Positions 11,725 through 39,668 of a stretch of 44,132 bases of DNA are shown here, in pieces. The number at the start of each line of letters is the position of its first letter. The stretch's first letter is position 1. Below the pieces are notes generated by a model, which was not told where the DNA came from, did no database searches, and saw nothing but the letters and a program-made list of their open reading frames with translations. The stretch covers positions 1 through 44,132 of the forward strand of contig JABIPN010000005.1 of assembly GCA_018698915.1 (NCBI GenBank), in the 5' to 3' direction. The position numbers were made by a program, and so were the translations under genes. The DNA comes from Candidatus Woesearchaeota archaeon (GTDB lineage Archaea > Nanobdellota > Nanobdellia > UBA10117 > ARS21).

Positions 11725-11982
11725 TTACAGCTTTTGTTTTGCTGCGCTTGCAAAATCTTTTTTCAATGAATCCAGTGCTGAGTTCCAAATAGACTTTGCT
11801 TCCTTTGATTTTGTTCTCAAAGTAAAAATTGCTTCTCCAACTTCGGGGTGTGTTATTTGAAATCCTGAGGACTCTATGTCTTTGCTTTCCCAAATTTTAT
11901 CATTAACTGCATTCAGTAGACCTTGATCAAAAGGTTTGAAACTAACTTTTAGTAAATTCTTTTGTTTAGAGATTATTTCCAT
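11725..11982 (-). CDS. rpoL: DNA-directed RNA polymerase subunit L
   Basis: 85 aa; QGLLNAVNDKI..., SGFQITHPEVGEAIFTLRT resembles RpoL/Rpb11. Confidence 0.82.
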   Translation of the reverse strand: MEIISKQKNLLKVSFKPFDQGLLNAVNDKIWESKDIESSGFQITHPEVGEAIFTLRTKSKEAKSIWNSALDSLKKDFASAAKQKL

Positions 11983-12007: not shown

Positions 12008-12757
12008 TTATAAAGATTTTGCTTTGGTTTTACCATTTAACTTATCAAAAATCTGTCTTAATTCTGTGCCATTAATCATTGTTTTTGGATAGAACGGTTG
12101 ATCTTCGACAATTCTAGGACATGCTGTGTTGACAAAACAATCGACTTCATGGTAATTCATAAGATCGTTTGGTGTAATGGTATCTGATAGAAGTATTACT
12201 GCTTTCTTTCCAAGTTTTTCTGCTTGTTCTTTCATTCGTTTTGCCATGTTAAGATAAACTTGCCCTGGTTTTGTTGAAACAATTATTCCATAACATTTTG
12301 CTTCTTCTGCATGATGCATTCTAGCTGCTTGTTTTGCGAAGAATTTTCGTCTTCGTTCTTCAGGAAGAAGTTCTACGGTTTGAGTAAGTGGATTTGCTAG
12401 CCAGATTGGTTTTTCTGAATTGAATGCAATAAATAGTGGATGAAATTCTCCAGTTCCTAAGAATACAAAAGCATCTACTTCTTCTTCAATATCTAATGCT
12501 GCTGATGCATCACATCCAAGAAGTTGACCTGAATGAAAAGCATAGATTCCTTGTTTTGGTTGAAGGTTCTTTGCAGGAGTTCCAACATGAATTTCCTTTC
12601 CGCCTTTCTTAAGATATATTTGTGCTTTTTTTAGATTTTTAATATGTTGAACTGTTGTTACAAGACCTATCTTCTTTTCTGGAACTATTTTGAGTACTTT
12701 ATCTAAAAGTGGTTCTATGTCTGCTTTGAGATAAGCTTCAATAAACAAGGTTCTCAT
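12008..12757 (-). CDS. dph2: Dph2, C-terminal fragment (domains 2 and 3; Cys2 and Cys3)
   Basis: TLFIEAYLKADIEPLLDK..., TTVQHIKNLKKA, GQLLGCDASAA, FLGTGEFHPL, VNTACPRIVEDQP; lacks domain 1. Confidence 0.9.
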   Translation of the reverse strand: MRTLFIEAYLKADIEPLLDKVLKIVPEKKIGLVTTVQHIKNLKKAQIYLKKGGKEIHVGTPAKNLQPKQGIYAFHSGQLLGCDASAALDIEEEVDAFVFLGTGEFHPLFIAFNSEKPIWLANPLTQTVELLPEERRRKFFAKQAARMHHAEEAKCYGIIVSTKPGQVYLNMAKRMKEQAEKLGKKAVILLSDTITPNDLMNYHEVDCFVNTACPRIVEDQPFYPKTMINGTELRQIFDKLNGKTKAKSL

Positions 12758-12777
12758 AAAACTCTGCTAAGTTTTTG

Positions 12778-12791
12778 GGTTAAAAGTGTTT
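12778..12791 (-). promoter_or_regulatory. Promoter-like motif AAACACTTTTAACC upstream of dph2 C-part
   Basis: 14 nt identical to 13476..13489; the same 21-nt offset from the A of each ATG. Confidence 0.5.
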
Positions 12792-12853
12792 CGAAGTGGA
12801 TGGGGAAAAAGAGCGCAAAAGCTAATTAAATTAAAAAAATAATTCCAAGAATC

Positions 12854-13147
12854 TTATCGAATCTTGGAAAAGATTTGAACTGCCATCAATAGTGCTCCAA
12901 TTAGCGTTAATAGGAATGCGACTACTACAAAAATGAGGTTAATATAACTTATTGCTGTTGCAAAACCTTCAGTTTGGATGAGTCCACTTTCAGCTACACC
13001 AGCTAGCAACAAGAAAACTGCACCTGCTGCGATGTAACTAAGTTCTTTCCGTACAGCAGCAACATAGCCACTGTATTTAAGTAACGCTAATCCTAGAAGG
13101 AGACCAATTCCGGTTCCAAGGCTTCCTGTTAATCCTAGAATTTCCAT
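12854..13147 (-). CDS. Small polytopic membrane protein, located between the two dph2 parts
   Basis: 97 aa with three or more hydrophobic segments; poly-T (7 T) on the minus strand about 15 nt past the stop. Confidence 0.6.
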   Translation of the reverse strand: MEILGLTGSLGTGIGLLLGLALLKYSGYVAAVRKELSYIAAGAVFLLLAGVAESGLIQTEGFATAISYINLIFVVVAFLLTLIGALLMAVQIFSKIR

Positions 13148-13188
13148 ATAAAGATACGTGCCTTGGTTTATTTAAATGTTGCGCAGAA

Positions 13189-13455
13189 CTAGTCTTTTAT
13201 GTTGTATGCGAAAGCGTGACCTATTGCCACCAACATATCATATTCTTTTGGTAGATTTGTTGGTACATCGCATGCTCCAAAATTTGAACCTGCCCAAAAT
13301 ACTATTGTTGCTCCAGTTAATTCCTCTAATTGTGTTTGAAGTTTTGAAGCGTCGTTTTTGAGACCGTCAGGTAATTGAATTACAATTGTCTTTGCGTTGA
13401 TTTTCTTTGCTTCGTCGACAATCTTCTGAATCTCAATATCATACTTTTCTAGCAT
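13189..13455 (-). CDS. dph2: Dph2, N-terminal fragment (domain 1; Cys1)
   Basis: IDEAKKINAKTIVIQLPDGLKNDASKL-like start, FWAGSNFGACDVP (first cluster Cys), DMLVAIGHA; ends where Dph2 domain 1 ends. Confidence 0.87.
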   Translation of the reverse strand: MLEKYDIEIQKIVDEAKKINAKTIVIQLPDGLKNDASKLQTQLEELTGATIVFWAGSNFGACDVPTNLPKEYDMLVAIGHAFAYNIKD

Positions 13456-13475
13456 AAAGATAGTGATTGAAGTTT

Positions 13476-13489
13476 GGTTAAAAGTGTTT
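13476..13489 (-). promoter_or_regulatory. Promoter-like motif AAACACTTTTAACC upstream of dph2 N-part
   Basis: Identical to 12778..12791, same distance to ATG. Confidence 0.5.
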
Positions 13490-13895: not shown

Positions 13896-14201
13896 ATGAG
13901 GTTTGTTATGAATGAAATTACTGTTGAAAGACTTGATAAGTATTTGAATTTGACGGCTACTGCACTTCAGAAAGTTAAATTAATGAAAAATATTTCTGAA
14001 AGAGAAAAGGAAATTGGTGAGAAATATTTGGAAATGGCTCGAAGTTATTTATCAGATGCAAATCACTTCAAAGATGGCGGAGACTTTGTTAATGCATTTG
14101 CTGCAGTGAATTATGCTCATGCTTGGTTAGATGCTGGTGCAATTGTAAAAATCTTTGATGTAGATGGAGATAATGTTTTATTTACTGCAGATGCTGACTG
14201 A
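13896..14201 (+). CDS. DUF357 family protein
   Basis: EKYLEMARSYLSDANHFKDGGDFVNAFAAVNYAHAWLDAGA is the DUF357 pattern. Confidence 0.8.
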   Translation: MRFVMNEITVERLDKYLNLTATALQKVKLMKNISEREKEIGEKYLEMARSYLSDANHFKDGGDFVNAFAAVNYAHAWLDAGAIVKIFDVDGDNVLFTADAD

Positions 14202-16490: not shown

Positions 16491-17153
16491 TTAAGTCGTA
16501 GTTGTTTCTGCAGTTTCTGCAATATTTTCTTCGTCTGTTACTTCTTCATCAGGTACAGATTCTTCAATTAGTGTATTACATTCTGGTGGTGAAATTACCT
16601 CTTCAAAATCTAAATTCATGTCAATAGAAAAAATTGGTTTAATCTTGTAAACAAATCCCTCTTCGCTTGCAATTTCTAAATAATCAACAAAGGCTTTATC
16701 CTCGTATTCAATCCATCCTGGTGCGCCCTTTATTTCTTCCAGTATTCCTTCGTTGTTATAATCAAATTGAATATCAAAAAATAAATTATTGTATAATGAA
16801 TATTCGTCTTCTAAAGACGTTTTCTTTATTTTTGGAAAATCTGCCATGTAAATATAGAAGTTGTATAAAAACATAGCTTCAAAATAATCTTCTTTGGTGT
16901 CATACGTTTCTTCACCAATCATATAGTTTGTGTTATCTATAATTTCGTTGATAGCATTACACTTTGATATTTCTGCAGAATCACCTAAATAATTATTTAT
17001 TGTCTGTCCTAAGGAAAATGCATCGGTAATTGCTGCATGAGTTTGTCCAATAGTTACTTCTTTCGTTATTCCACCTTCGGACCACATGAACACTGCACCT
17101 AGAGATACTAAAATTACAACTGCTGTTATAATTAGCATTTGTCCTTTTTTCAT
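16491..17153 (-). CDS. Pilin-like protein with class III signal peptide
   Basis: MKKGQMLIITAVVILVSLGAVFMW N-terminus; acidic C-terminal domain. Confidence 0.65.
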   Translation of the reverse strand: MKKGQMLIITAVVILVSLGAVFMWSEGGITKEVTIGQTHAAITDAFSLGQTINNYLGDSAEISKCNAINEIIDNTNYMIGEETYDTKEDYFEAMFLYNFYIYMADFPKIKKTSLEDEYSLYNNLFFDIQFDYNNEGILEEIKGAPGWIEYEDKAFVDYLEIASEEGFVYKIKPIFSIDMNLDFEEVISPPECNTLIEESVPDEEVTDEENIAETAETTTT

Positions 17154-17947
17154 TAGTAATTCAACCTCATTTCAGCAAATATTTTACAAACTTCTAATTC
17201 AGAAGGATATTCCATTGGATCGCATTTAACTGGAATTGCATAAACACAGGACTCATGTCTTATATCATCATCATATTTTAATCCTTCAAGTCCATCTAAA
17301 CCTGAATCAACTCTTGCTAATGTGTGTTCTTCATCTTTAGCTTTGCAGTCTTTTATGAAATCGTTACAATAATTGTGAATTCTTAAGCTGTATGGTGTTT
17401 TTGATAACATCGCTGATAATTTGTCCCCGATTGTCTTTAAGCGATCATTTAGTAATGGTTGTTTTATTCCTTGTATGGTTTGAACTTCGGTTTCTGCTGG
17501 AGCTGTCCAAGTTAAGACACAAGTTGATTCGGAATTAAAAGTAGTAGTTACATCAGTTACATCAGAATCTGAACAAGTACTTGAATCTGTATCCCAAGTT
17601 AAGACACAAGTTGATTCGGAATTATATGTATCAGTTACATCAGTTCCTCCAGAATCTGAACAAGATCCTGCCGTGGTTGAGGTGCTAGATACTGTTGTTC
17701 CAGTAATAAAACTTCTTGAAATCACAGATGAGGATGTTCCTTCGTCAAAGAATTTATCTGATTGCATAATTGTATTTAGATTAACTTGACAATTTGTTTT
17801 TGAATTTTGAGCATAAACTATTGCAGTTGCCTCAATATTTGATTGGCCTGCGAAATAATAACTTGCTACGACAATAACTAACATTAGTACTGCACCAATG
17901 AAAAGTTCTACTACAAAATTTATTTGACCTTTCTTTAAGCTATGCAT
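17153..17947 (-). CDS. Pilin-like protein with class III signal peptide and internal Cys/Trp repeat
   Basis: MHSLKKGQINFVVELFIGAVLMLVIVVASYYFAG; two copies of (T/S)CSDS...NSESTCVLTW. Confidence 0.65.
   Translation of the reverse strand: MHSLKKGQINFVVELFIGAVLMLVIVVASYYFAGQSNIEATAIVYAQNSKTNCQVNLNTIMQSDKFFDEGTSSSVISRSFITGTTVSSTSTTAGSCSDSGGTDVTDTYNSESTCVLTWDTDSSTCSDSDVTDVTTTFNSESTCVLTWTAPAETEVQTIQGIKQPLLNDRLKTIGDKLSAMLSKTPYSLRIHNYCNDFIKDCKAKDEEHTLARVDSGLDGLEGLKYDDDIRHESCVYAIPVKCDPMEYPSELEVCKIFAEMRLNY
17507..17664. repeat. Tandem ~87-bp imperfect duplication inside a pilin-like gene
   Basis: 31-nt exact match ccaagttaagacacaagttgattcggaatta at 17507 and 17594, plus shared cagaatctgaacaag further on. 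Confidence 0.85.
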
Positions 17948-18537
17948 AATTTGAATACCCCCAATTTAGTTGTTTGGTCGTCGATTATATTTATTAGAAA
18001 CTCACCTTTTCGTCTTGATCTGGCGCAATCTAAAGTCCCATAAGTTTTATCGATTATAGTTCTTCTCCATTTTTCGCCTTCTTCAGTTTCTTCTACAAGT
18101 TCATAGAATGTTACACTATATTTTTGAATTGTCTTTTGTTCTTCCCAATCTTCGCCTTCACTCTCGCAGCTTGCCTTAGAAGTATATTTCGGGTCGGTAC
18201 ATATATCTATCTTGTCAAATCCCTTTAGACAGGGTCCTATAACTGATTCCGTAATTCGTTCCTTTCTTACATTTCCTATTTGGACAAAATTTATTGGTTT
18301 ATCTGACCAATCTACAGTTATTTCACTTCTTTCTGCTAAGCAGTTATCTGATGCTATTAATCTATTTCCAATAACTCCAAAATCGAGATTTGATAATTGT
18401 AAATCTTTATTGATTGCTACATTAATTAAATAAGATTTTACGGATATTAATCCGATAATTATGAAAAGAACTGCAAAGAATAGATACATCAATGTTTGAA
18501 TTTCCCCCTCTCCTTTTTTTGATTTTATTCTTATCAT
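17935..18537 (-). CDS. Pilin-like protein
   Basis: MIRIKSKKGEGEIQTLMYLFFAVLFIIIGLISVKS N-terminus. Confidence 0.6.
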   Translation of the reverse strand: MIRIKSKKGEGEIQTLMYLFFAVLFIIIGLISVKSYLINVAINKDLQLSNLDFGVIGNRLIASDNCLAERSEITVDWSDKPINFVQIGNVRKERITESVIGPCLKGFDKIDICTDPKYTSKASCESEGEDWEEQKTIQKYSVTFYELVEETEEGEKWRRTIIDKTYGTLDCARSRRKGEFLINIIDDQTTKLGVFKLCIA

Positions 18538-20279
18538 ATTTCTTTGTCAATTACTAATACGTATTCTTTTTCTTCCTCATCAAATTCTTTGCTTATTGTG
18601 ATTAATAGTGCGTCCTCCATATAATATTCTTTTTGAGAATCTATCAATGATGGTGATCCAGTTAAATAGGAAAATAAGGTAGCTGAATCAAGAGGTGCTA
18701 AATGATTTAACGTAAAGAATATCGGAAAAAGTGCAGGATTTCTAGTTCTAATTGAAATTAATCCCACAATTCCATCTAAAAATAAATTTCCGCCCCAATT
18801 ATCTTTCGCTGACTCCCAAGAACCTTCTCCGAACAATTCATTATTTGACCACACACTTATTGTCATTAAATCGTAAGCTAAAATGCAACTGTTACCATAT
18901 TTTGGTTCAATAATCCCCATAGTAACACAAGTTGCAAAAGGAGCTATAACTAGCAAGCGATAAGGATGAATGAGTGTGTTACCTGTACCTGCTTGTCCGC
19001 TAGATATTGCAGTACTACCAGTTCCGTCAATAACACCTTCAGTGGCGCCTAAAATTTTGTAAAAAAATGATCCATCTTGATTTAGATAAACATTATGTGC
19101 ATCGTAGCATTCGTCGCCTTTGTTTGTTATTGATTTGTAACTTTTTATTTCTCCCGTTGATTCTGACATAGGGATGTTCATTGCAGACCCTATGAATCCT
19201 TCTAATCCTGGGACCCATCCAATCCAAGGTAAATCAACTTCTGAATCAATTGAATATCTCTTACTCTCGCAGTTGGGCTTTGCAACATGTATTGGAATCG
19301 GACCAGTATGGAAACTGTATTCTCCAAATTTTTTATCGATTTCATTCCTTGCGTTCCGCGAGTTTCTAATGGAATGTTCAATCGGATAAATAGTAATCAC
19401 TGCGATAGTTGCAGCTAAAACGCCAAATACGATTCTTCTACTTATGGTAATAGTGGCGCAAGCACCTGCCGATACTGGATTAGTTGCTGCAGTAGCACAA
19501 GCAATTTCTTCAGGGATATCTGATACTTCCGCAGCAGCTTGTGTTTCCACAAGAGTTACAACTGCAGCAGATTCTACAGCTATTGCGGTTCCCATTCGTC
19601 TAGCAAGTACTTTTGCTGCAATCTTCTTATATGCCCACATTCCAGCTCCATATATTGCTCTTGCCGTTGAACTTACTGGCTTTCTGATAAATCTTTTTGC
19701 TTTTCCTGCCGCTGTTGTTGGTTTTATTTTTTCACCTATTTTTTTTGCTGCAAGACCAAATTTGTCTGCTCTTTTTTTTGCTATATTTTTGCTTTTTTCA
19801 GTAGCTGCTTCTGATGCCTCTCGGGTTGCTTTATCTGCAACTTCTTGATAGACTTCTTGCTGAGCCCTCATTGCAACATCACTTCCTCTAAAACTATTCA
19901 GAACAAATAATCCTACTGCTTCTTCTGCAGAAACTTCTCCATACATTGATTTTTGAATTTGCATTTTAATTAAATCCTGGGGCCAGGGGTGAACTTTTAT
20001 TTTTTTATCCTCTGCATTTAACAAAATAGTTCCAAATGCGGGATATCCTAATGCAGTTAATGGTGTTGAAGTATAAACTGATATTTCGTTTGGAGCTGAT
20101 GCTACTAAATCCATATTTGATGCGAATTCTCTTGCTGCAACATCTGGATCACCCATAACCATATCTCTGACTATATCATCAAACGTTGTGTATACTGCGA
20201 ATGCTGAAACTGCTGTTGCAAGGAGAACTCCAACTAGTAAAATCAAATTTGCACTTTGTCCTATTTTATTTATTCTCAT
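18534..20279 (-). CDS. Large (581 aa) pilin-like/membrane protein with Ala/Lys-rich central region
   Basis: MRINKIGQSANLILLVGVLLATAVSAFAVYTTF N-terminus; a second hydrophobic segment IVFGVLAATIAVITIYPI. Confidence 0.6.
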   Translation of the reverse strand: MRINKIGQSANLILLVGVLLATAVSAFAVYTTFDDIVRDMVMGDPDVAAREFASNMDLVASAPNEISVYTSTPLTALGYPAFGTILLNAEDKKIKVHPWPQDLIKMQIQKSMYGEVSAEEAVGLFVLNSFRGSDVAMRAQQEVYQEVADKATREASEAATEKSKNIAKKRADKFGLAAKKIGEKIKPTTAAGKAKRFIRKPVSSTARAIYGAGMWAYKKIAAKVLARRMGTAIAVESAAVVTLVETQAAAEVSDIPEEIACATAATNPVSAGACATITISRRIVFGVLAATIAVITIYPIEHSIRNSRNARNEIDKKFGEYSFHTGPIPIHVAKPNCESKRYSIDSEVDLPWIGWVPGLEGFIGSAMNIPMSESTGEIKSYKSITNKGDECYDAHNVYLNQDGSFFYKILGATEGVIDGTGSTAISSGQAGTGNTLIHPYRLLVIAPFATCVTMGIIEPKYGNSCILAYDLMTISVWSNNELFGEGSWESAKDNWGGNLFLDGIVGLISIRTRNPALFPIFFTLNHLAPLDSATLFSYLTGSPSLIDSQKEYYMEDALLITISKEFDEEEKEYVLVIDKEI

Positions 20280-20962
20280 TGTACTTGAAATTGACTTACC
20301 GGATCATCGCAACCGAAATCAAACCATTTTTTTGAATATACTACAAAATTATCCTTTTCACTTACTATTATTGGGATAAAGGGAATACTTGGTACTGGAG
20401 TATATACTAGTGAAATTCTATCACCAATATTGCAAACACAGAAAGTTTCATCAATCTCTCTGTTGAAACTTGGATTTATAGTTAAACCGTGTATTTCACT
20501 GTACCCGTCTCCTGCTTCCTTTTCTTCTTTAAATCGCGTAAGGTTTTGCACATTTGCGCAGGTTCTTGATTCGCTTTGACAGATAATTTCTCCATCTGGA
20601 TCCATATTGAGTGTAATGCTATCAATTGATTTAGTTTCTTTACTAATTACCTTACCGTCGTCATCTTTAATTACCTTACCGTCGTCATCTTTCTCTAACT
20701 CTCGATTGTAAAGAATTAGTAAATTTCCTTCGGCTTTGATCTGATAAGACCTAGTCATTTTTATTTCAGCTGAAGAACAACTATCTGCTGTTGTTGCTTG
20801 ATTTACTGATGTTGCAATTGCACGAAGAGAATATACTGCCATATCTTGATCATCTTCCAAACTGAGTGTTGTTGATAATAAAGTTGCTCCAACCATCACA
20901 AGTACTACTGTCATGATAAGTCCAAAGATGATTGCGAATAGCATACTTGCTCCTTTTTTCAT
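20276..20962 (-). CDS. Pilin-like protein with class III signal peptide
   Basis: MKKGASMLFAIIFGLIMTVVLVMVGATLL. Confidence 0.65.
   Translation of the reverse strand: MKKGASMLFAIIFGLIMTVVLVMVGATLLSTTLSLEDDQDMAVYSLRAIATSVNQATTADSCSSAEIKMTRSYQIKAEGNLLILYNRELEKDDDGKVIKDDDGKVISKETKSIDSITLNMDPDGEIICQSESRTCANVQNLTRFKEEKEAGDGYSEIHGLTINPSFNREIDETFCVCNIGDRISLVYTPVPSIPFIPIIVSEKDNFVVYSKKWFDFGCDDPVSQFQVQ
20645..20692. repeat. Exact 24-bp tandem duplication (KDDDGKVI x2)
   Basis: aattaccttaccgtcgtcatcttt twice, head to tail, in frame. Confidence 0.95.
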
Positions 20963-21159
20963 TAGTCAAATAAATTCTCCAAGTTTTCTTGTGCTCCGCT
21001 CTCAATTCCTGTTTCAATGCTACTAAGTGCACTATCAGTTCCCGTTAGAGCTGCCCACTTGCCAGTTACAAAAAGAAGGATTAATGCGAGCACGGTTATT
21101 GCAATTATAATAATAATTACTGTTTCAATAGGTAGTGCCATTCCGCGCTTAGATTTCAT
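20962..21159 (-). CDS. Small pilin-like protein
   Basis: MKSKRGMALPIETVIIIIIAITVLALILLFVTGKW, 65 aa. Confidence 0.65.
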   Translation of the reverse strand: MKSKRGMALPIETVIIIIIAITVLALILLFVTGKWAALTGTDSALSSIETGIESGAQENLENLFD

Positions 21160-21198
21160 ATTTTAATCTATGCTTAATTTTATAAAAAGCTGACTGTG

Positions 21199-22812
21199 TT
21201 ATAGTGTTCTTGTAATTCCTGTTTGGCAAATATCTTCAGGACCTTCCATTGAAGGGAATACACTTGCCACAATACTTAAGACTGGGCAATTAAGCGGTAA
21301 GTTTTCACTGAGAAGTCGAGATCCTCCTCCTGTTGGTGCATCAGTTATTATTATCTTTCTTCCTGCTTTATCCGGAGTATCCTTATTTCCAGTATCACAA
21401 ATAGTTGATGCAACTACGTTTGACATTAGTGGGAGTGTATCTCCACAATATTCTATTGCAAACATTTTGTTCTGTATTATCTTAAATTTGCCTGAGGGAT
21501 AAAATGTAAGTCTGTCATCGCAGTTCATGTTATTATTAGAAACTGCAGTACAATAGCTTACTCCTCTTGATTCAATTTGAACATTTTTCATAAAGTTCCT
21601 CAAATCCGTTTCAGAAAATTCAATTGTTCCAGTTTCTAACTTTGTGTCTTTAACTAATTGAAATGGTAAATCCCTATAGTTTGTTATCGTAGTTCTGTGG
21701 GCTTCGTTATTATAGTTTGTTATCGTAGTTCTGTGGGCTTCGTTATAATAACTAAGGAAACTTTCCTCATAAGGTCCGACTTTTTCTTTGTAAGTTTGAA
21801 TATTATCTAAATCGTTTTGAATTTTTGAAGTCATTGTTCCAATTTCGCAATCAAATTCTTTGTCACCAACTTGGACTACTTCATTCCTTGAATATTTGGT
21901 CACTACTTCATATACTGTATTTACTTCCAATTCGGAATAAATTTCATCAGTAGTCTTCATTGGGCACATACAGGTGATGTCCACTTCACTTGTATCTTTA
22001 GCTACTATTGCGTCTTTTATTGATGATACATCTTTCCCTGTATCAATTTCACATTGTTCATCTTCTTCTACTCCTTTACAAATCAATGCACTGTCAGAAT
22101 CATAGTCCTCTGTTTTATAATATCCCCAAAATCCTGTACCTTCTTCAAGTTCTGGCTCTTTTCTACATACTGTAAATTGATCCTTTATTGCTGCTTCCTT
22201 TATTCTAATTAAATTATTTAATCCTGCAAGTACTGATGCATCAGTTATAGCATCATTTGCAATTGATTTGCAGTCTTGATCTCTAAGTTCACAACCAAAG
22301 GATTTAATTAACTGTTTTTTGAACTCAGCATATTCACTAATCTCTGGAGTTTCGCTAGCATCAGAGATTACAAAATTAAAACAAGACCAAGAAAATGCTG
22401 TTCTTCGGCCAGATCCGGACATATCCCAACAACGTTCAATTCTATCTGCTACTTGTTGCATGGCGCAATTGGTTGCCCCAAGCGTTGGTTCAGTAATCGC
22501 TTGCTCTTCAAAAGAAGAATCACAGTTATCCCAATCTTGTGGATTTATTGTATTTGTCTGAGGTGTACATCCTGCGCGTAAAGATTCAGATAGCGTTCCT
22601 ATTTTTAGTAAGAATTCTTCTGTATTACTAAGATCTTTGTCGATTTCAAAACTTAGTGCTGAAATTTTTCCTTTGCAAACCTCATCATTTAATTTTGAAT
22701 GGTCTATATCTAATTTTGAACCAAAGGATTGTAATAAAACTAGTGCTGTTAATAGTCCAAGAACTGCAACAATTATTGATATAATTACCCAGCTTGCGAT
22801 TCCTTTTTTCAT
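21199..22812 (-). CDS. Large Cys-containing pilin-like protein
   Basis: MKKGIASWVIISIIVAVLGLLTALVLLQSFG N-terminus; 537 aa with many Cys. Confidence 0.62.
   Translation of the reverse strand: MKKGIASWVIISIIVAVLGLLTALVLLQSFGSKLDIDHSKLNDEVCKGKISALSFEIDKDLSNTEEFLLKIGTLSESLRAGCTPQTNTINPQDWDNCDSSFEEQAITEPTLGATNCAMQQVADRIERCWDMSGSGRRTAFSWSCFNFVISDASETPEISEYAEFKKQLIKSFGCELRDQDCKSIANDAITDASVLAGLNNLIRIKEAAIKDQFTVCRKEPELEEGTGFWGYYKTEDYDSDSALICKGVEEDEQCEIDTGKDVSSIKDAIVAKDTSEVDITCMCPMKTTDEIYSELEVNTVYEVVTKYSRNEVVQVGDKEFDCEIGTMTSKIQNDLDNIQTYKEKVGPYEESFLSYYNEAHRTTITNYNNEAHRTTITNYRDLPFQLVKDTKLETGTIEFSETDLRNFMKNVQIESRGVSYCTAVSNNNMNCDDRLTFYPSGKFKIIQNKMFAIEYCGDTLPLMSNVVASTICDTGNKDTPDKAGRKIIITDAPTGGGSRLLSENLPLNCPVLSIVASVFPSMEGPEDICQTGITRTL
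21675..21746. repeat. Exact 36-bp tandem duplication (12 aa, NEAHRTTITNY repeat)
   Basis: tatagtttgttatcgtagttctgtgggcttcgttat twice, head to tail, in frame. Confidence 0.95.
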
Positions 22813-23471
22813 AGTATTTGAGTTTCAACATTTTGTGCTGCGTAATTATTTGATTCGATATATGTCTGATTTAATAAATCTGGGAGATTCAAATTTGCAG
22901 TAAGTTGAATATAAAGTCCATATACCAGTCCGATAATTCCTGCTATAATTAATAACATGATTAAACTTGACTGTAAAAGATTGAATGTGGTAAAGAAGCT
23001 TGCCGTTTTTGCAATAATAAATATAAAATATAATATAGAGAATAAGAACAGAAAGTAAAACATTACTGTTACGGCATATATTTTTGAAGTTAATATGGCA
23101 AGCGAATACATTAATTTAATTATGAGAAAAAAGAGCATGATTGATTGCATTGCCAGAAAAAGTTGTCCAAAATTTACTTGTTTTCGGAATAATTTTGCCA
23201 ATACAAATACTATTATCGCTATTGCTGCCAGCAGCATTGCGAGAGCGATTATTATGTACGTTAGTAGATTTAAAGAGGGTAAATAGAATGCTAAAAAATT
23301 AATTTGAGGTATATATTGTACAACAACATAAGTATCAATCAATTTGATTAATGAATATCCTACTGCAAATAAAACATAAGTTAGAATTAAACGACCGAAA
23401 GTGTGATAATAAATAAATTTATACATTGATTCACGTCTTCCAAGAATTGTTCCGAAAAGATCCTTTAACAT
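22809..23471 (-). CDS. Polytopic membrane protein of the pilus-like locus
   Basis: 220 aa, multiple hydrophobic segments, coupled start/stop with neighbours. Confidence 0.6.
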   Translation of the reverse strand: MLKDLFGTILGRRESMYKFIYYHTFGRLILTYVLFAVGYSLIKLIDTYVVVQYIPQINFLAFYLPSLNLLTYIIIALAMLLAAIAIIVFVLAKLFRKQVNFGQLFLAMQSIMLFFLIIKLMYSLAILTSKIYAVTVMFYFLFLFSILYFIFIIAKTASFFTTFNLLQSSLIMLLIIAGIIGLVYGLYIQLTANLNLPDLLNQTYIESNNYAAQNVETQIL

Positions 23472-23623
23472 TATAACCCTCCTTCTGCTGTGCCAAGCAA
23501 ATTCCTTATCAAGTTAGTGATAGATCCATCAGCGCCCATTTTTCCCAGAATAAATAATACAATAAGTGTTGCTAGAGTTATTGCAATTATTATTCCTATG
23601 ATTTGTTTAAACGCTAATTCCAT
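23471..23623 (-). CDS. Short pilin-like/TM protein (50 aa; not in the ORF track)
   Basis: MELAFKQIIGIIIAITLATLIVLFILGKMGADGSITNLIRNLLGTAEGGL*; stop and start overlap with neighbours (TAATG). Confidence 0.6.
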   Translation of the reverse strand: MELAFKQIIGIIIAITLATLIVLFILGKMGADGSITNLIRNLLGTAEGGL

Positions 23624-23772
23624 TATATCAAGTTTTTCAAGGAGTCTCCCATTTTTCCAATAAGGCTTTGAGACTCGCCTTTAATTGTTATTGCAAATCC
23701 TATGAAAATTAGAAGAAAAATTACTGCCAGTAATAGTGCAACAATCTGCCAATTTATTTGACCCTTGTTCAT
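23623..23772 (-). CDS. Short pilin-like protein (49 aa; not in the ORF track)
   Basis: MNKGQINWQIVALLLAVIFLLIFIGFAITIKGESQSLIGKMGDSLKNLI*; class III-like NKGQ; TAATG overlap with the next ORF. Confidence 0.62.
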   Translation of the reverse strand: MNKGQINWQIVALLLAVIFLLIFIGFAITIKGESQSLIGKMGDSLKNLI

Positions 23773-23803
23773 GTATTACAAAAATGTTCTAAATATATAA
23801 GCT

Positions 23804-24919
23804 TTAGCAGACGCCGTTGTATCCGTAATTGATGCTGTCTTTTTCTATGTCCCAATCCGCATTTCGAGTCAGGGATGCGAATCCGATATCTGTAAATGGT
23901 ATTTCAAGCCAGTCATCAGAATCAACATATTGAACTGTCCAATCACTATTTTCTGTGAAGCGGAATCTTTCTCTGGCATAAATATAATCGGCGATTAATT
24001 TGACTGAATCATCATCATCTAATGTTTGAATAGTTTCAATTGGAAACGTGAGTATATCCAGGAAGTCTTTTGACTCTTGATTTTCTGGTGCGATCGTTAG
24101 GGTATTAATTTTTATCCTGCCTGTTGAAATTCTGCTTTCGTAGGTTTCTTCTTGACTGAATCTTCGAGTGGTTTTTCCATTCACAAAAACTTCTTTCAAA
24201 TCTGTTGGTGTAACTGCTTCAAAAGGAAGCTTAATTACTAGTGAATATTCACCAGAAGTCATAGAGTTGACGTTGATTATTGAATCATCATCTGTTTTTT
24301 CTAATTCCACGCCGAACGAGTTTCCAATATAGGGTTCCAATTTACTCAGATCTTGAATTTTATCTGATTTGAATTTCTTTCCAGGAAATATGTAGAAATT
24401 ATCCAATTCTGGATTTTCAAAATCGAAAAATTTGTTTGGTAGCTTTATCATTTGATTGCTTTCATCAAGAAATATTGAACCGTAAGAAGGTTTCAAACAC
24501 ACGCTGGAGCAAGTCCAAGTTGGTAAATTTCCTTTTCCCGACATATAATTGGTCCAGCAAGTTAGACCTTTGTCAGCTAATCTAAATGTTTCGCAAGCTC
24601 GAGATAATTCTTTTGGAGATAAGGTTTCTGCTTGAGCTTTAACTTGTGGACAATTTTTGAAATCAAAATTGAGATTACCCTCACGATCTTCTTTGAATTC
24701 CATTGGAGTAATTACTGCCAGGCTAGTTTTGCAGGGACTTGTTTGTGCTCCGGAGATGCTTGCTAATCTTACTCCGACAAGACAATTGAAATCAGTATTT
24801 TCTTTTACAACATCTGCAATTCCTGAGAACATAAATATTGCAATCATTCCGCTAACTATGGCAACTATGGCCATGACTACCCAACCAATACCAATACCTC
24901 GTTTATTGAAATAGCCCAT
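23804..24919 (-). CDS. Pilin-like protein with large C-terminal domain
   Basis: MGYFNKRGIGIGWVVMAIVAIVSGMIAIFMFSGIAD N-terminus; 371 aa. Confidence 0.62.
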   Translation of the reverse strand: MGYFNKRGIGIGWVVMAIVAIVSGMIAIFMFSGIADVVKENTDFNCLVGVRLASISGAQTSPCKTSLAVITPMEFKEDREGNLNFDFKNCPQVKAQAETLSPKELSRACETFRLADKGLTCWTNYMSGKGNLPTWTCSSVCLKPSYGSIFLDESNQMIKLPNKFFDFENPELDNFYIFPGKKFKSDKIQDLSKLEPYIGNSFGVELEKTDDDSIINVNSMTSGEYSLVIKLPFEAVTPTDLKEVFVNGKTTRRFSQEETYESRISTGRIKINTLTIAPENQESKDFLDILTFPIETIQTLDDDDSVKLIADYIYARERFRFTENSDWTVQYVDSDDWLEIPFTDIGFASLTRNADWDIEKDSINYGYNGVC

Positions 24920-25007
24920 TTTTAATTATGATAAGTCCGACAATTATTGCAGCTATGGAAAAAATAAGCGCTGTAATCCACGCCATTTGATTGCTTTGTC
25001 CTTTCAT
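24903..25007 (-). CDS. Very short pilin-like ORF (34 aa; not in the ORF track)
   Basis: MKGQSNQMAWITALIFSIAAIIVGLIIIKNGLFQ*; overlaps the start of the next gene. Confidence 0.45.
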   Translation of the reverse strand: MKGQSNQMAWITALIFSIAAIIVGLIIIKNGLFQ

Positions 25008-25048
25008 TTAGTAAAATTGCTTTTGTTATATATATAGTTTATTTGGGA

Positions 25049-25435
25049 CTAAGTTACTGATGGATCTAACCAATCTAAATCATCACAATTTTCAACTCCA
25101 TCTCCGTCCGCATCTCCTGAAGGCAGATTACAAACCTCTTCTACAGCAGTGTCTTGAGGACAATCAGCAGTAGAAACTATTAATCCCGCACAACCGCTCA
25201 AAGGACATTTGTCCGCACAAACTTTTTTTGTATATGGCGTTCCGGCACCTGCCTTTTCCATATTACATGCCAATTGGCATCCTGCGCTTGAAGCGGTTTC
25301 ATCCGGTCCGTATTTATCTAACTCTGCTGATGAATCTGCAAACTGTCCAGTGAAAAATAAAACAACTGCTGCTAAAACAACTAGAGCAATAATTACCATA
25401 ATTACTGTATTAATACTTAGTTGTGCTTTTTTCAT
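25049..25435 (-). CDS. Pilin-like protein with C-terminal Ca-binding-type motif
   Basis: MKKAQLSINTVIMVIIALVVLAAVVLFFTGQF; C-terminal DADGDGVENCDDLDWLDP. Confidence 0.65.
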   Translation of the reverse strand: MKKAQLSINTVIMVIIALVVLAAVVLFFTGQFADSSAELDKYGPDETASSAGCQLACNMEKAGAGTPYTKKVCADKCPLSGCAGLIVSTADCPQDTAVEEVCNLPSGDADGDGVENCDDLDWLDPSVT

Positions 25436-25447
25436 TGCTTATCCTGT

Positions 25448-25858
25448 CTAACTAGTTGTAATGAGATATGTAGTTTCATCACATTCATCATTACTTAATG
25501 AAATGGTTCGGGTAGGTGTGCTTACTTTGGCTGTACATTTAACGAATATTGGATCTTCCCAACATTTGAGTACTGCTTCTTCACCACTACCAGTAATATC
25601 TATACTGAAATCTTTTCTACAATATTGTGAAGTCAACCAAGCATTAGTTCCTTGTGATGAAATTTGCAATTTTGTTGTAGCGCAAAATGAAGAACATTGA
25701 GATTTTGCTGCGTCAATTTCGTCCAGCCCAGTTTCGGCTACCTGTCCGAAAAGCTTTCCAAGTCCACCAGTCGTAAATGCGACAAGCAAAACGAGAACTA
25801 GTAGTGCTATCGCAACATACACGATTGTGTTCATACTAATCTGGGCTCGCTTTGACAT
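25448..25858 (-). CDS. Pilin-like protein
   Basis: MSKRAQISMNTIVYVAIALLVLVLLVAFTTGGLG; start placed at the second Met, which also reduces overlap with the upstream gene. Confidence 0.62.
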   Translation of the reverse strand: MSKRAQISMNTIVYVAIALLVLVLLVAFTTGGLGKLFGQVAETGLDEIDAAKSQCSSFCATTKLQISSQGTNAWLTSQYCRKDFSIDITGSGEEAVLKCWEDPIFVKCTAKVSTPTRTISLSNDECDETTYLITTS

Positions 25859-25898
25859 TAGAATAATATGTCTGCAGTTTTTTAAATAGTTTTTGTGA

Positions 25899-27932
25899 CT
25901 AAGCAAGTGACGCAGTAACTAGTGTTGCCATTGATGAGAAGATCATTGTTCCAATTAAAGTTAATCCGCAGTAAATTAATGTGCTTTTTAGAACATTCTG
26001 TGAAAGCATCCACTCGAAATTGATTTTTCCTGGTCCGTTTACGATTCCTGAAATTGTGAAGCTGAGTAGGAAGACAACTTGAATTATGTATATTCCGACC
26101 ATTAATTGAAGAACATATGGTGGTAAAGCGGATTCTACATTGAAAAGACCTCCGAGATTTCCGCCCAGTCCCATTTGTCCGGTTTCTGAGGCCCCGCCTT
26201 CAATTGTTGCTAGTTGTCCAGATAAATTAGTTAGTACTTTTGTTATTAATACTGAAAGACTTACAACTAGTGCGGAAACAAGTGGTGCAAGGAATGCGGC
26301 CTGCATTCGCATTGAAGAAAGAGTGTCTGAAAGAAGATCAGTCATCTTTTCCTTGATAGTATGCATATTTTGGAGATACTTTGATAGTGCAGTCATTGAT
26401 TCTGCTGCCACAGTAGGACTTTTTTTGACTGCTTCTAAGAGCAAGTTCATAATTGAGGAAATAAGATCGGATGGGTACAAATTGTTTGCTCCGTATTTCT
26501 TGTCAAATAATGCTTCTTTGAGAGTCATTCCTCTTTCTCTAATATTTGAGTCAACAATTTCAAAGAATTTTGATATTTCACTACCTTTTGTATTTTCAGC
26601 TACTTTTCCGAAAGCAGCTTCTGCAGGAATATTTTCACCAATTCGGTTTCCTAATTGGAATATTGCTGATGAAAACTGATCCTCAATACTTTCTATTTTA
26701 TTTTTTAGTTCTACTACTTTCTTATTCTTGAAATGATAATAAACATAAGACGCAATTCCTAGTGAGAACACAATTGCAATTGTGAGATAGAACGGTCCGT
26801 TTTCAAATTTTAAATGTGTCCAATTGCCCGACTGTGCAATTGTAAATATTAAGAATATTGCAGGAAGTGCAATTAGTGCAATTACTGCTGCTGCACCAAA
26901 GAATGGTCCAACGCCTGAGTTTGGGAATTTTTTCAATAAAGTTTTATTCTGAACACTTGCTCCGCCTGGACGTACGGAAATTATATTTCTTGCTTGTATA
27001 AATACGAATATAGGAAGAACCACATTATAGATTATTATTAATTGTGCGGGATTTATGCTGTCTGCGAGAAATGCACCCACCATTGGAAGCATTACCAACA
27101 TCATCATTGGTAGAACAATTCCAAGCATGTGAATCATTTGAATTGGGTTTTTTAGATTGTGCGCAAAATGAATCATGTTGTCCTTTATTCCTTGTGTAAT
27201 TACGTCGTTGGCTTTTTCTAAGGTCTTTTTTGCTTTATCTGCATTCGGTTCAACTAATGATGCTTCAATTAAATGCATTGCATCCACAAATGCAGGTTCT
27301 GAATCTTTCCAAGTTTCTAAATAACTATCTAACGATTTTTGGACTGAGCTAAATTTCTTAGTTTCAAAATCCCAAAGTACTTTCATAAAGTCTAATGAAA
27401 GTGGTGGAGACATTTGGTTTGCAACGAATAGTATCGCTCGCTCGAGATTTGCGTCTCGCTTCATATGTATTACTATATATAGCACAGATAACATTAGTTG
27501 GTCAGCTGCTTGAGCACGCCAGGAATTGAATAGATATTTTGGCATGTTTGCAAAATAATAAAGTGAAAATATTCCTGCTCCTGCTAAAATTGCTGTAAAA
27601 AACATTGAACTAGTTAGTATGAATACTGCTATTGTTGCTGCAATAAATGGTATTATTGAAAGTATTGCGAGTGCGTTTACAGATTCAGGTTTTACCTTAA
27701 TATGTGTTAATGTGATATACTTTTGAAGTTGTTCTTTTTCTTCGGGTTTTAATGTTAGTTTTAGAATTTTCCCTGCAGCATTTGCCATGCGCTCATAGCT
27801 TGTTGATAATATGGTTTTCTTCTCAGATCTAAATTGGTCATATGCGCGAGAATAGGATATTTTTGTTCTTGACTCTACTTCGCCGGGTTTTTCTGCGGCT
27901 TCTAGTCTTTCTTCAAATTCATTTACCATCAC
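25899..27932 (-). CDS. FlaJ/TadC-like pilus assembly platform membrane protein
   Basis: 677 aa; two T2SSF-like halves with repeated TM blocks; directly downstream of the secretion ATPase. Confidence 0.83.
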   Translation of the reverse strand: MMVNEFEERLEAAEKPGEVESRTKISYSRAYDQFRSEKKTILSTSYERMANAAGKILKLTLKPEEKEQLQKYITLTHIKVKPESVNALAILSIIPFIAATIAVFILTSSMFFTAILAGAGIFSLYYFANMPKYLFNSWRAQAADQLMLSVLYIVIHMKRDANLERAILFVANQMSPPLSLDFMKVLWDFETKKFSSVQKSLDSYLETWKDSEPAFVDAMHLIEASLVEPNADKAKKTLEKANDVITQGIKDNMIHFAHNLKNPIQMIHMLGIVLPMMMLVMLPMVGAFLADSINPAQLIIIYNVVLPIFVFIQARNIISVRPGGASVQNKTLLKKFPNSGVGPFFGAAAVIALIALPAIFLIFTIAQSGNWTHLKFENGPFYLTIAIVFSLGIASYVYYHFKNKKVVELKNKIESIEDQFSSAIFQLGNRIGENIPAEAAFGKVAENTKGSEISKFFEIVDSNIRERGMTLKEALFDKKYGANNLYPSDLISSIMNLLLEAVKKSPTVAAESMTALSKYLQNMHTIKEKMTDLLSDTLSSMRMQAAFLAPLVSALVVSLSVLITKVLTNLSGQLATIEGGASETGQMGLGGNLGGLFNVESALPPYVLQLMVGIYIIQVVFLLSFTISGIVNGPGKINFEWMLSQNVLKSTLIYCGLTLIGTMIFSSMATLVTASLA

Positions 27933-30184
27933 TTCTTTCCGGCTTCAATATTCACCCAAGATTCCCACTCGTTGTAAATTTTTTCGGGATCAGATCGTCC
28001 TTCCTTTTGAAAAGAATCTTCGCTAATTCGGTGAAACATATCGTTTGCCATGATTGTAAATTCTGCTTCCATAATCTCTGGTTTTTCTTGTCCTAGCTCT
28101 ACTAATTTTTCTTTTATCTTTGCACGCATCAAAATATTTTCCCAAACTGCATCCCAGTCTCCTGCCCATTCTGCAATTCTTGATGCTATAGATTTTAGAA
28201 CTACACTCTCTCCTTGGATTAATGCATCTGTTGGTTCCAGAGTATCAGTTACTGGATTGTAAACCATCAAGTCAACAAAACCGTGTTCTCGTAGCGGATC
28301 ATCTTCCCACTCTTTTCTTACTTCTGAAATTTGAAGTACTCTTCTGAGTTTCCCAATTCCTGATGCTGACTTTACTGGATTTGAAATTATAATTATATCT
28401 GTAGCTTTGAAAGAAGTTTTTGGAACTCCCAAATCATTTACAACTCTGTCGTAAATTGAGTATGGTGAATCACCGTGAATTGTTCCCATAACTACATTTG
28501 CAAGTGCTCCTACTCTCATTGCTTCATATAATGCTACTGCTTCTTTGGAACGAACTTCTCCTACAATTAATGCTGAGTCTCCAAGTCTTAGTGATGTCCG
28601 AATTCCGTCAGTTGCTGTAAGTTCTGATTCTCCTTGAGTAATTACTGATTGTACTTTCATTGATTGTATGTCATATTTTAATTCTTGATATTTTGAGATT
28701 GGAAGTTCCAGCGTATCTTCAACAATAATTATTCGAGTGGAACGCATTAATTCAACAATTGCTGCGGATAATAATGATGTTTTTCCAGAGGATCTGGTTC
28801 CGGCAAATAATACAGTTCTTCCGCCGTCCATTATGAAGCTCATTAATGCTGCTGCTAGTGGATTAAGCATTTTGTTTTGTATGAATAGTGGGAAAGTCCA
28901 TGGACGATCTCTGTGTCTTCTGATTGAGAATGCTAAACCTTGTGGACTTAGGGGCATCTGAATTGCGGAAACTCTAGCTGTTGCGTTTTCAAATACTAAG
29001 TTTGTATCTAGAACGGGATTTGCTTCGTCTAAAGGTCTTCCGCTTAAAAGTCTTAACTTAGTTGCCCAACCTTCAACTTCTTTGCTTGTTAAAGTTATAT
29101 TGGTTATGCATTCGCCAAAATCTTGATGTACGATTGAAATTTCGTTTAGATTTGCTGGAGCATTTATTGATATGTCTTGTATTTTCGAATCTCCTAGCAT
29201 GATTTCTGCTATTCCAAAACCTAACGTATTTCTAACTAATATTGTTGCTAGTTGTTCAATTTCGTCTTCACTTAATTTTATTCCATGACTTATGCTTAAA
29301 TCTCTAAGTAAATCTTTTTCTACTGACATGAAAAGTTCACGAGTTCTTTGTGGATCTATAAATTCTGAACGCTGAGGTTTGTGTTCCGAAACAATTCTTT
29401 TTGCCTCACCAAGCATTGCATATTTGTTTTCTGTTAAACTATATTCTGGTGGAGTTAAATGATATACTGGTCTGATCTCATTTGGTAATCTTAATATTAC
29501 TACTCTTGATCCGTCTGGAAGTTTGTATGCTTCTAATTCTTCTGCTCCGGTTGGAAATTTTGTTACTAATTTTGCATATAGAAAATTAGGTTTGATTATT
29601 GGGTTGAATAGTTTTGAATAAATCACTCTGCTTCCTGGTTTGTGGTCTTTTAGATATGATTGAGATCGCTTAATTATTGTGAGACTCTCTAATCTTTGTT
29701 TGATTGAATCTAATGTTGTTATGAATATTTGAAGTGAATCTTTTCTTAAATTTGGATCTGACTTAAATTTTGAATGCTCAGTTTCTAATCTTGTAACAAC
29801 TCTGAGATATGAAGCAATTGGATCTTCCTTTAGTCCATAATTTATTGCTGATTTTAGAAATTCAATTCGTTCAGGATATTGATTTTGATCTTCCGCCACC
29901 TTTACAAAATCTTCTGAAAGTAATTTAGTTCGATCAATGAATTCGGTTATCAAGTTTGCAATTTCAATAAGCATATTCGTTTGATCTAGTGTGTAAATGT
30001 AATCTTCTTGTTGTTTGAACATAATTTGGGAAACTCTTCCTGCCTTGATTAGTTTGTTAATTGTGTCAGCCATTACTGTTTCATTTTTTTCAATTATTGG
30101 TGTAATAATGCTCTTTGAATAATCAATTTCAAGAATTCTTTGCCCGGGTTCTTCGACAAGACGATAGGGATTTTTAGATTTCAT
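27929..30184 (-). CDS. FlaI/TadA/VirB11-like type II/IV secretion ATPase
   Basis: 751 aa; Walker A VLFAGTRSSGKTSLLSA, Walker B SALIVGEVRSKEAVALYEAMRVGALANVVMGTIHGDSP. Confidence 0.93.
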   Translation of the reverse strand: MKSKNPYRLVEEPGQRILEIDYSKSIITPIIEKNETVMADTINKLIKAGRVSQIMFKQQEDYIYTLDQTNMLIEIANLITEFIDRTKLLSEDFVKVAEDQNQYPERIEFLKSAINYGLKEDPIASYLRVVTRLETEHSKFKSDPNLRKDSLQIFITTLDSIKQRLESLTIIKRSQSYLKDHKPGSRVIYSKLFNPIIKPNFLYAKLVTKFPTGAEELEAYKLPDGSRVVILRLPNEIRPVYHLTPPEYSLTENKYAMLGEAKRIVSEHKPQRSEFIDPQRTRELFMSVEKDLLRDLSISHGIKLSEDEIEQLATILVRNTLGFGIAEIMLGDSKIQDISINAPANLNEISIVHQDFGECITNITLTSKEVEGWATKLRLLSGRPLDEANPVLDTNLVFENATARVSAIQMPLSPQGLAFSIRRHRDRPWTFPLFIQNKMLNPLAAALMSFIMDGGRTVLFAGTRSSGKTSLLSAAIVELMRSTRIIIVEDTLELPISKYQELKYDIQSMKVQSVITQGESELTATDGIRTSLRLGDSALIVGEVRSKEAVALYEAMRVGALANVVMGTIHGDSPYSIYDRVVNDLGVPKTSFKATDIIIISNPVKSASGIGKLRRVLQISEVRKEWEDDPLREHGFVDLMVYNPVTDTLEPTDALIQGESVVLKSIASRIAEWAGDWDAVWENILMRAKIKEKLVELGQEKPEIMEAEFTIMANDMFHRISEDSFQKEGRSDPEKIYNEWESWVNIEAGKK

Positions 30185-30229
30185 TGGATATACTTAAATA
30201 TAAACTCGACTTATAATATATACTTTATC
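30185..30229. promoter_or_regulatory. 45-bp bidirectional promoter between the secretion ATPase and FlaC/D-like genes
   Basis: tggatatacttaaatataaactcgacttataatatatactttatc between the two divergent ATGs; TATA-like tracts on both strands. Confidence 0.5.
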
Positions 30230-30619
30230 ATGGAATCGCAACCGTTTCAAATGCCTCAGAAAGTCTCACCAGAAGGCTCAGGAAACGTTTTGGGAGCAAT
30301 TGCTAAGTTAAATCGCCGGCTCAGTCTGATTGAAGATAGAATTGGTGATGTTCGAGACCAAGTTGATTTAATTGAAACAAATTTAGTTGATAAACATAAA
30401 TCTGCAATTTCTGGACTTGTTGAATTGAATAATAAAATTAAAGATTTTAATTCTAAAATAACTGATCTGAATAACGATAATTTGCGTTTAACATCGCAAA
30501 TAAGTAACTTTGCAACTAAACAAGACGTTCAAGTTTTGGAAAGATATATAAATTTCTGGAACCCCTTGGATATATCAAAGAGTAGAAAACCTGTTCTTGA
30601 TGATGAGGAAGAAATATAA
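30230..30619 (+). CDS. Coiled-coil protein, archaellum FlaC/D/E-like
   Basis: Heptad-rich middle region; C-terminal ATKQDVQVLERYINFWNPLDI; start at MESQPF. Confidence 0.5.
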   Translation: MESQPFQMPQKVSPEGSGNVLGAIAKLNRRLSLIEDRIGDVRDQVDLIETNLVDKHKSAISGLVELNNKIKDFNSKITDLNNDNLRLTSQISNFATKQDVQVLERYINFWNPLDISKSRKPVLDDEEEI

Positions 30620-31845: not shown

Positions 31846-31846
31846 T

Positions 31847-38901: not shown

Positions 38902-39630
38902 TTAATAGTTTGCGATAAAATCTTCTTCGGAGAAATTTAGTTCTCCCGGAATGATTATGCAGTAAGGTGCATTTCCGAAATCTTGGTTTTGTAGGTTTTT
39001 TATTGAATCGTATTTGATTACTTCACTTTCTAATCCTAAACGTGAACAGCCTATTGCTTTTCCAAGTTTGAAATTTCGTTTTTTTGATATTTCTTGTATA
39101 ATTTTTAGTGCTTCTTTGATTGAAAGGAATTTATTCTCTTTTGGATCCAAGTCTAGCAAAAATAATGTATGTGCTCCGATTGATTGATTTTGTTCCAATA
39201 AATCAAAGAAAGATTCTGGTTTATGATTTTCAGTCCAAAATGGAATTGATGCAGTCTTTCCGAATTTGTATAATTGTAATCCTGTTCTTGCTATTGCAGT
39301 GAAAATTGATACAGATTGAATTATCTTAGTTTGGATATTTTTCTTCTTTGCTTCTTGTAAAATTTCTGTGTGGGTTGTTGCAGATAACGGATCTCCGTAA
39401 ATTAATAATGTAATTTCTTTATCTTTTTGGAAGAATGGTTTTTCTTCTTCAACTTCTGAGCGATGTAGAACTTTGATTTTTGTTTTTAGAAATTCTTCTA
39501 GTTCTTTAATTGTGTAATCAGATAACGAAGTATAACTTTCGATGTAAACTTCGTCGGATTTATTTATAGCTTCGATTCCTTTGACTGAAATGTCCTTCAG
39601 GCTTAAACCCAATCCTACTATGTTTAACAT
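38902..39630 (-). CDS. dphB: Diphthine synthase
   Basis: MLNIVGLGLSLKDISVKGIEAI..VYIESYTS, YGDPLSATTH, ARTGLQLYKFGKTASIPFW. Confidence 0.93.
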   Translation of the reverse strand: MLNIVGLGLSLKDISVKGIEAINKSDEVYIESYTSLSDYTIKELEEFLKTKIKVLHRSEVEEEKPFFQKDKEITLLIYGDPLSATTHTEILQEAKKKNIQTKIIQSVSIFTAIARTGLQLYKFGKTASIPFWTENHKPESFFDLLEQNQSIGAHTLFLLDLDPKENKFLSIKEALKIIQEISKKRNFKLGKAIGCSRLGLESEVIKYDSIKNLQNQDFGNAPYCIIIPGELNFSEEDFIANY

Positions 39631-39668
39631 GTTTATATCCAAAATAGAACTTTTATAAGAGTAATGAA

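What the first reader, a model, noticed from the sequence alone, without database searches (positions are those of the whole stretch)
12008..13489. Dph2 (diphthamide radical enzyme) split into two genes with a membrane-protein gene between them
Directly visible: an 88-aa ORF (13189..13455) carries Dph2 domain 1 with its Cys (NFGACD), and a separate 249-aa ORF (12008..12757) carries domains 2-3 with the other two Cys (LLGCDAS, NTACPR). A 97-aa membrane-protein gene lies between. In single-chain archaeal Dph2 the 4Fe-4S cluster is held by one Cys from each of three domains (established for Pyrococcus horikoshii Dph2), so the cluster here would have to form across two polypeptides. The break falls at the domain 1/2 boundary, just after the GHA motif. 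Diphthine synthase is also in this window, which suggests the pathway is active.
Basis: partly seen in the sequence, partly recalled or inferred. Interest (0 to 1): 0.85.

Follow-up and report, generated by a model that had tools for sequence, protein, structure and literature searches.

The report
Split diphthamide enzyme gene (Dph2)
This small archaeon makes the iron-sulfur enzyme that starts a universal modification of its translation factor EF2 from two separate genes instead of one; the split is real, old, under selection and shared by most of its relatives, but splits of this gene were already reported in related archaea.

Summary
An 88-aa ORF (13189-13455, -) is Dph2 domain 1. A 249-aa ORF (12008-12757, -) is domains 2-3. 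They cover the Dph2 profile without overlap (1-57 and 64-293), and no full-length dph2 was found in the held genome assembly (88% complete).

It is not an assembly artefact or a decaying gene. A genus-mate has the same layout. Both halves are under purifying selection (dN/dS 0.05-0.18). The three cluster cysteines are kept in every readable relative. The SAM pocket lies entirely on the C half. EF2 keeps the modifiable His, and Dph5 and Dph6 are present.

The split is nearly class-wide: 127 of 157 sampled genomes carry both halves. In some, the halves form a coupled gene pair; in the window each half has its own TATA box. Eleven genomes carry single-chain dph2. Ten of those form a separate clade with euryarchaeal enzymes, and one genome carries both forms, so intact genes were probably acquired later.

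Split DPH2 was reported in nanoarchaeon Nst1 (Podar 2013) and, per Dombrowski 2019 citing Narrowe 2018, in Woesearchaeota, Pacearchaeota, Parvarchaeota and Altiarchaeota. So this is a new member of a known kind. Cluster assembly across two chains is strongly implied but untested.

The parts
13189..13455 (-). dph2 N half (88 aa): domain 1 with cluster Cys C62 (NFGACD)
   Evidence: TIGR00322 1-84 E 1.5e-16 and PF01866 1-57 E 2e-8; phmmer to 6bxm residues 4-84; AlphaFold model of the isolated half retrieves only Dph2 chains as its top 15 PDB folds; dN/dS 0.05 and 0.13
12008..12757 (-). dph2 C half (249 aa): domains 2-3 with cluster Cys C82 and C213 and the whole SAM pocket (G81, H106, Q166, I194, R215, E218, D219)
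   Evidence: PF01866 64-293 E 6.5e-49; phmmer to 6bxm 92-294 E 2e-38; SAM-pocket mapping (residues from PMC10669111); dN/dS 0.07 and 0.18
12854..13147 (-). 97-aa small membrane protein between the halves; an order-level family that follows the N half, not a Dph2 part
   Evidence: no Pfam match; homologues in 16 of 20 relatives, near the N half even where the C half lies elsewhere
13476..13489 (-). promoter-like element AAACACTTTTAACC upstream of the N half; its TATA-like box CTTTTAA starts at -29 from the ATG
12778..12791 (-). identical promoter-like element AAACACTTTTAACC upstream of the C half, TATA-like box also at -29; these are the only two copies of the 14-mer in the window
11725..11982 (-). 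RNA polymerase subunit L-like gene downstream of the C half; syntenic marker
   Evidence: PF13656 E 8e-8; same neighbour in G001 and G002, and a similar ORF after the C half in G004, G008, G014 and G015
38902..39642 (-). Dph5, diphthine synthase, next pathway step
   Evidence: TIGR00522 E 5e-73

Best explanation
The two genes encode the two subunits of a split but working Dph2. The 88-aa N subunit (domain 1) supplies one cysteine. The 249-aa C subunit (domains 2-3) supplies the other two and the whole SAM pocket. The subunits assemble non-covalently, probably as an (N+C)2 counterpart of the single-chain homodimer, and hold one [4Fe-4S] cluster per N+C pair at their interface. The enzyme transfers the aminocarboxypropyl group of SAM to the EF2 histidine; Dph5 and Dph6 finish diphthamide. 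The gene was probably split once, early in the class, by a stop-start between domains 1 and 2 that left an operon; later insertions and rearrangements separated the halves. Shown here: sequence coverage, conservation, selection, class-wide distribution and pathway completeness. Inferred: complex assembly, the shared cluster, activity and the order of events.
For: Complementary coverage at the domain boundary. No full-length copy found in the own genome. Same arrangement in genus-mate G001 (94% and 89% identity) and family-mate G002. Both halves under purifying selection. Cluster Cys present in 51/51 N halves and in all readable C halves, and SAM-pocket residues nearly invariant. EF2 with LHEDSIHRGPAQ, Dph6 and Dph5 present. 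In G018, G105, G104 and G096 the N-half stop is followed within a few nt by the C-half start, with a Shine-Dalgarno-like AGGAGGG, GGAGGG or GAGGG just upstream inside the N half. In the window both halves have an identical TATA element at the same distance. Evolutionary distances of the two halves correlate (r 0.70, 0 of 2000 permutations as high).
Against: No complex, cluster or activity has been measured. The own genome is 88% complete, so an unassembled full-length copy is not fully excluded. Two near-complete genomes (G019, G026) show only an N half and one (G046) only a C half, so one half may sometimes persist alone, although gaps between contigs could explain these. The distance correlation reflects shared species history and is not proof of interaction. 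No heterocomplex model could be run.
Confidence: 0.88

Rival explanations
1. Pseudogene or early decay: a broken dph2 in a reduced genome with no remaining function.
For: The genome is small and reduced (524 kb). One sampled relative (G021, 95% complete) has no detectable Dph2 or Dph5, so loss of the pathway occurs in the class.
Against: dN/dS 0.05-0.18 for both halves, all three cysteines and the SAM pocket retained across the class, separate promoter-like elements for both halves, and a complete remaining pathway with the EF2 target His.
Confidence: 0.03
2. Assembly or sequencing artefact that separated a continuous gene.
For: The genome is a 35-contig draft. One relative's C half (G006) does look broken by masked N runs.
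Against: G001, held in a separate contig record, has the same gene order at 89-94% identity. Over a hundred other genomes break at the same profile position. Each half has its own start, stop and TATA-like box.
Confidence: 0.01
3. The C half alone, or the C half with a cluster of different ligation, is the enzyme, and the N half has been recruited for another role.
For: The SAM pocket and two of three ligands are on the C half. In G047 the N half is fused in frame to RNase HII. A few genomes show only one half.
Against: The N-half cysteine is kept in 51 of 51 sequences, and adjacent pairs in G018, G105, G104 and G096 look translationally coupled, which points to joint function.
Confidence: 0.06

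Closest known systems
Split DPH2 of nanoarchaeon Nst1 (Nst_222/Nst_440; Podar et al. 2013, PMC3655853, Table 1)
   Same: Dph2 encoded by two separate genes in a nanoarchaeon
   Different: Listed in a table only; split site, cluster cysteines and distribution are not discussed in the passages read. I could not compare the Nst1 sequences directly.
[quoted passage not shown] 2018, as cited by Dombrowski et al. 2019, PMC6349945)
   Same: Same kind of split in DPANN lineages, read there as a possible sign of genome reduction
   Different: The original paper is not held here, so split site and lineage details could not be compared. My sample adds that the split is nearly class-wide, that intact genes form a separate clade, and the operon and dispersed gene layouts.
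Single-chain archaeal Dph2 (PDB 3lzd, 6bxm-6bxo, 6q2d)
   Same: Same three cluster-Cys motifs and SAM-pocket residues; 29-37% identity for each half
   Different: Two polypeptides instead of one, broken at the domain 1/2 linker
Other split proteins of Nanoarchaeota (reverse gyrase, RNA polymerase B, Glu-tRNA amidotransferase; PMC3655853)
   Same: One gene in most organisms, two genes here, needing assembly after translation
   Different: Here a metal-cluster site itself is divided between the chains

Membership tests
Archaeal Dph2 (TIGR03682/arCOG04112, radical ACP transferase) | Full coverage of the Dph2 profile by the gene product(s) | tested here: met
   N half 1-66 plus C half 72-298 of 308 positions; neither half alone reaches the equivalog cut-off of 202.8 bits
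Archaeal Dph2 (TIGR03682/arCOG04112, radical ACP transferase) | Three cluster cysteines, one per domain | tested here: met
   C62 (N half), C82 and C213 (C half); kept in all readable relatives
Archaeal Dph2 (TIGR03682/arCOG04112, radical ACP transferase) | SAM-pocket residues of CmnDph2 | tested here: met
   G, H, Q and R identical, V to I, D289 to E, D290 identical (residue list from PMC10669111)
Archaeal Dph2 (TIGR03682/arCOG04112, radical ACP transferase) | Single polypeptide | tested here: not met
   Two ORFs in different frames with another gene between them
Archaeal Dph2 (TIGR03682/arCOG04112, radical ACP transferase) | [4Fe-4S] cluster and ACP transfer to EF2 His | not testable with these tools
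   needs reconstitution; target His present in EF2
Split Dph1/2 of DPANN archaea | Two genes with complementary halves and no full-length copy in the genome | tested here: met
   own genome 88% complete
Split Dph1/2 of DPANN archaea | Same split site as the published cases | tested here: inconclusive
   Same site in the sampled class; published Nst1 sequences not available here

The most novel reading that the evidence does not exclude
In most of this archaeal class Dph2 is an obligate two-subunit enzyme whose catalytic [4Fe-4S] cluster is built across two separately translated chains. The split arose once, near the base of the class, and has been undone only by acquisition of an intact gene from outside, caught in progress in a genome (G113) that holds the intact gene and both halves.
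Probability: 0.6. Interest if true: 0.5.

Novelty: new member of a known kind. Interest (0 to 1): 0.4.

Why it matters
A radical-SAM-type cluster whose ligands come from two independently made proteins gives a natural system for studying how such clusters assemble, and the isolated 88-aa half offers a way to switch the cluster site on and off in vitro. For evolution, the same breakpoint across the class, the coupled pairs, the dispersed pairs and the intact replacements together give an unusually complete record of how a gene fission persists and is replaced. It is not a new kind of system, and the existence of the split was already in print.

Tried and rejected
Three-way split in G006: rejected, because both C-half pieces end in runs of N, so it is a masking or assembly effect. 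Membrane protein as a third Dph2 subunit: rejected, because it was not found in the two class members outside the order that were checked (G018, G019) and has no relation to Dph2. Trans-splicing or inteins: no sign; each half has its own start and stop. Recoding of the in-frame stop in the adjacent pairs: unlikely, because the stop is TAA or TAG and a start codon follows within a few bases. AlphaFold of the C half with two sequences gave low confidence (pLDDT 49.6) and was not used; the N half (pLDDT 66.6) was good enough only for a fold match. My first mapping of the SAM pocket used the wrong numbering offset and was redone.

Full report
Observation. The 88-aa and 249-aa ORFs are at the stated places on the minus strand, with a 97-aa membrane-protein ORF between them and gaps of 41 and 96 nt. 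Profile searches place the first on the start of Dph2 (TIGR00322 1-84, PF01866 1-57) and the second on the rest (PF01866 64-293, TIGR03682 72-298). Both halves hit the three solved archaeal Dph2 proteins in complementary stretches. Missing between them is only the short linker after the GHA motif. No other Dph2 match was found in the held genome, which is 88% complete.

Not an artefact. The genus-mate G001 (contig length equal to that of JAAZWY010000003.1) has the order N half, membrane protein, C half, RpoL, at 94% and 89% amino-acid identity for the halves. G002 of the same family has the same order with one extra ORF after the N half. dN/dS is 0.048 and 0.065 for N and C against G001, and 0.131 and 0.180 against G002, similar to or below the neighbouring genes.

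Anatomy. C62 of the N half and C82 and C213 of the C half align with the three cluster cysteines of single-chain Dph2. They are kept in 51 of 51 N halves and in all C halves with readable sequence at those sites. The SAM-contacting residues of the Methanoperedens enzyme, listed in PMC10669111, all fall on the C half and are kept: G81, H106, Q166, I194 for V, R215, E218 for D, D219; most are nearly invariant in the split relatives. So the C half carries the SAM site and two ligands, and the N half carries the third ligand. The isolated N half, modelled with low to moderate confidence (pLDDT 66.6), retrieves only Dph2 structures among its top 15 PDB matches.

Expression. Both halves have a TATA-like box starting 29 nt before the ATG, inside an identical 14-mer AAACACTTTTAACC found nowhere else in the window; the membrane-protein gene has its own at -31, and many genes in the window have similar boxes near -30. 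This suggests three separately started, leaderless transcripts (inference). In G018, G105, G104 and G096 the halves are adjacent: the N half ends in GW followed by TAA or TAG, the C-half start follows within a few nt, and AGGAGGG, GGAGGG or GAGGG lies just before the stop. That looks like translational coupling.

Pathway. EF2 has LHEDSIHRGPAQ with the modifiable His. Dph6 (PF01902, E 2e-67) is on contig C4. Dph5 is in the window.

Distribution. In a class-level sample of 56 genomes, most show the two pieces meeting near profile position 60. In a phylum sample of 157 genomes (counted by hand from the table), 122 have two or more partial matches and no full-length one, and four have the adjacent pair read as one match. 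Eleven have a single-chain gene, of which one, G113, also has both halves. Eighteen show one half only and two show none. G021, one of those two, also lacks Dph5. All genomes drawn were of the same class, so other archaeal phyla were not sampled. The N-half rows of that table were mostly cut off for length, so for genomes outside the class-level sample the second partial match is taken from the match count, not read off its coordinates.

History. In a maximum-likelihood tree of the C region, ten single-chain proteins form one clade (100/100) beside the three solved euryarchaeal enzymes, apart from all split sequences. In the reduced tree, which leaves out the long-branched G166, the split sequences lie on one side of a branch (98/97). 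Grouping the single-chain G116 with the split G049 of the same family is rejected (p-AU 1e-34), as is grouping the two forms within G113 (p-AU 1e-5). Because single-chain holders are scattered over families that otherwise carry the split gene, later acquisition of an intact gene is the simplest reading. An ancient pair of genes with differential loss is not excluded. The same breakpoint everywhere and the tree fit a single old split; the root was not inferred.

Known work. Podar et al. 2013 list split DPH2 in Nst1, absent from N. equitans. Dombrowski et al. 2019 state, citing Narrowe et al. 2018, that Dph1/2 is split in some Parvarchaeota, Pacearchaeota, Woesearchaeota and Altiarchaeota. The existence of the split is therefore published. 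What I add for this window is the demonstration that it is a conserved, selected two-gene enzyme with a divided cluster site and an intact pathway, together with its near class-wide distribution, gene layouts and apparent replacement by intact genes. I found no paper in the held library that tests the divided enzyme, but the library is incomplete.

Noticed in passing
L110:2-694 (-), genome G047: dph2 N half fused in frame to RNase HII (PF01351, E 3e-22). The N half of G022 (L062) also ends in an RNase HII-like ICGIDEAGR string.
   Followed up: partly
G113 C1:995210-996142, 803713-803946, 741126-741674: One genome carries a full-length dph2 and both halves of the split dph2.
   Followed up: partly
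window 12854-13147 (-): Small membrane-protein family without a Pfam match, linked to the dph2 N half in most of the order and sometimes present in two copies.
   Followed up: partly
G020 C13:20563-21201 and C7:440-907: Two different C halves in one genome; paralogue or contamination not resolved.
   Followed up: no
G019 C29, G026 C51, G046 C12: Near-complete genomes in which only one Dph2 half was detected.
   Followed up: partly
G021: 95%-complete genome without detectable Dph2 or Dph5; whether EF2 keeps the target His was not checked.
   Followed up: no
window 16491-32428: Long run of predicted secreted or membrane ORFs with pilin-like N-termini, with a large ATPase-like ORF (27929-30184) and a membrane ORF (25899-27932) that resemble type IV pilus machinery by eye.
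   Followed up: no
window 13896-14201 (+): DUF357 protein (PF04010, E 8e-24) on the opposite strand next to the dph2 N-half neighbourhood.
   Followed up: no
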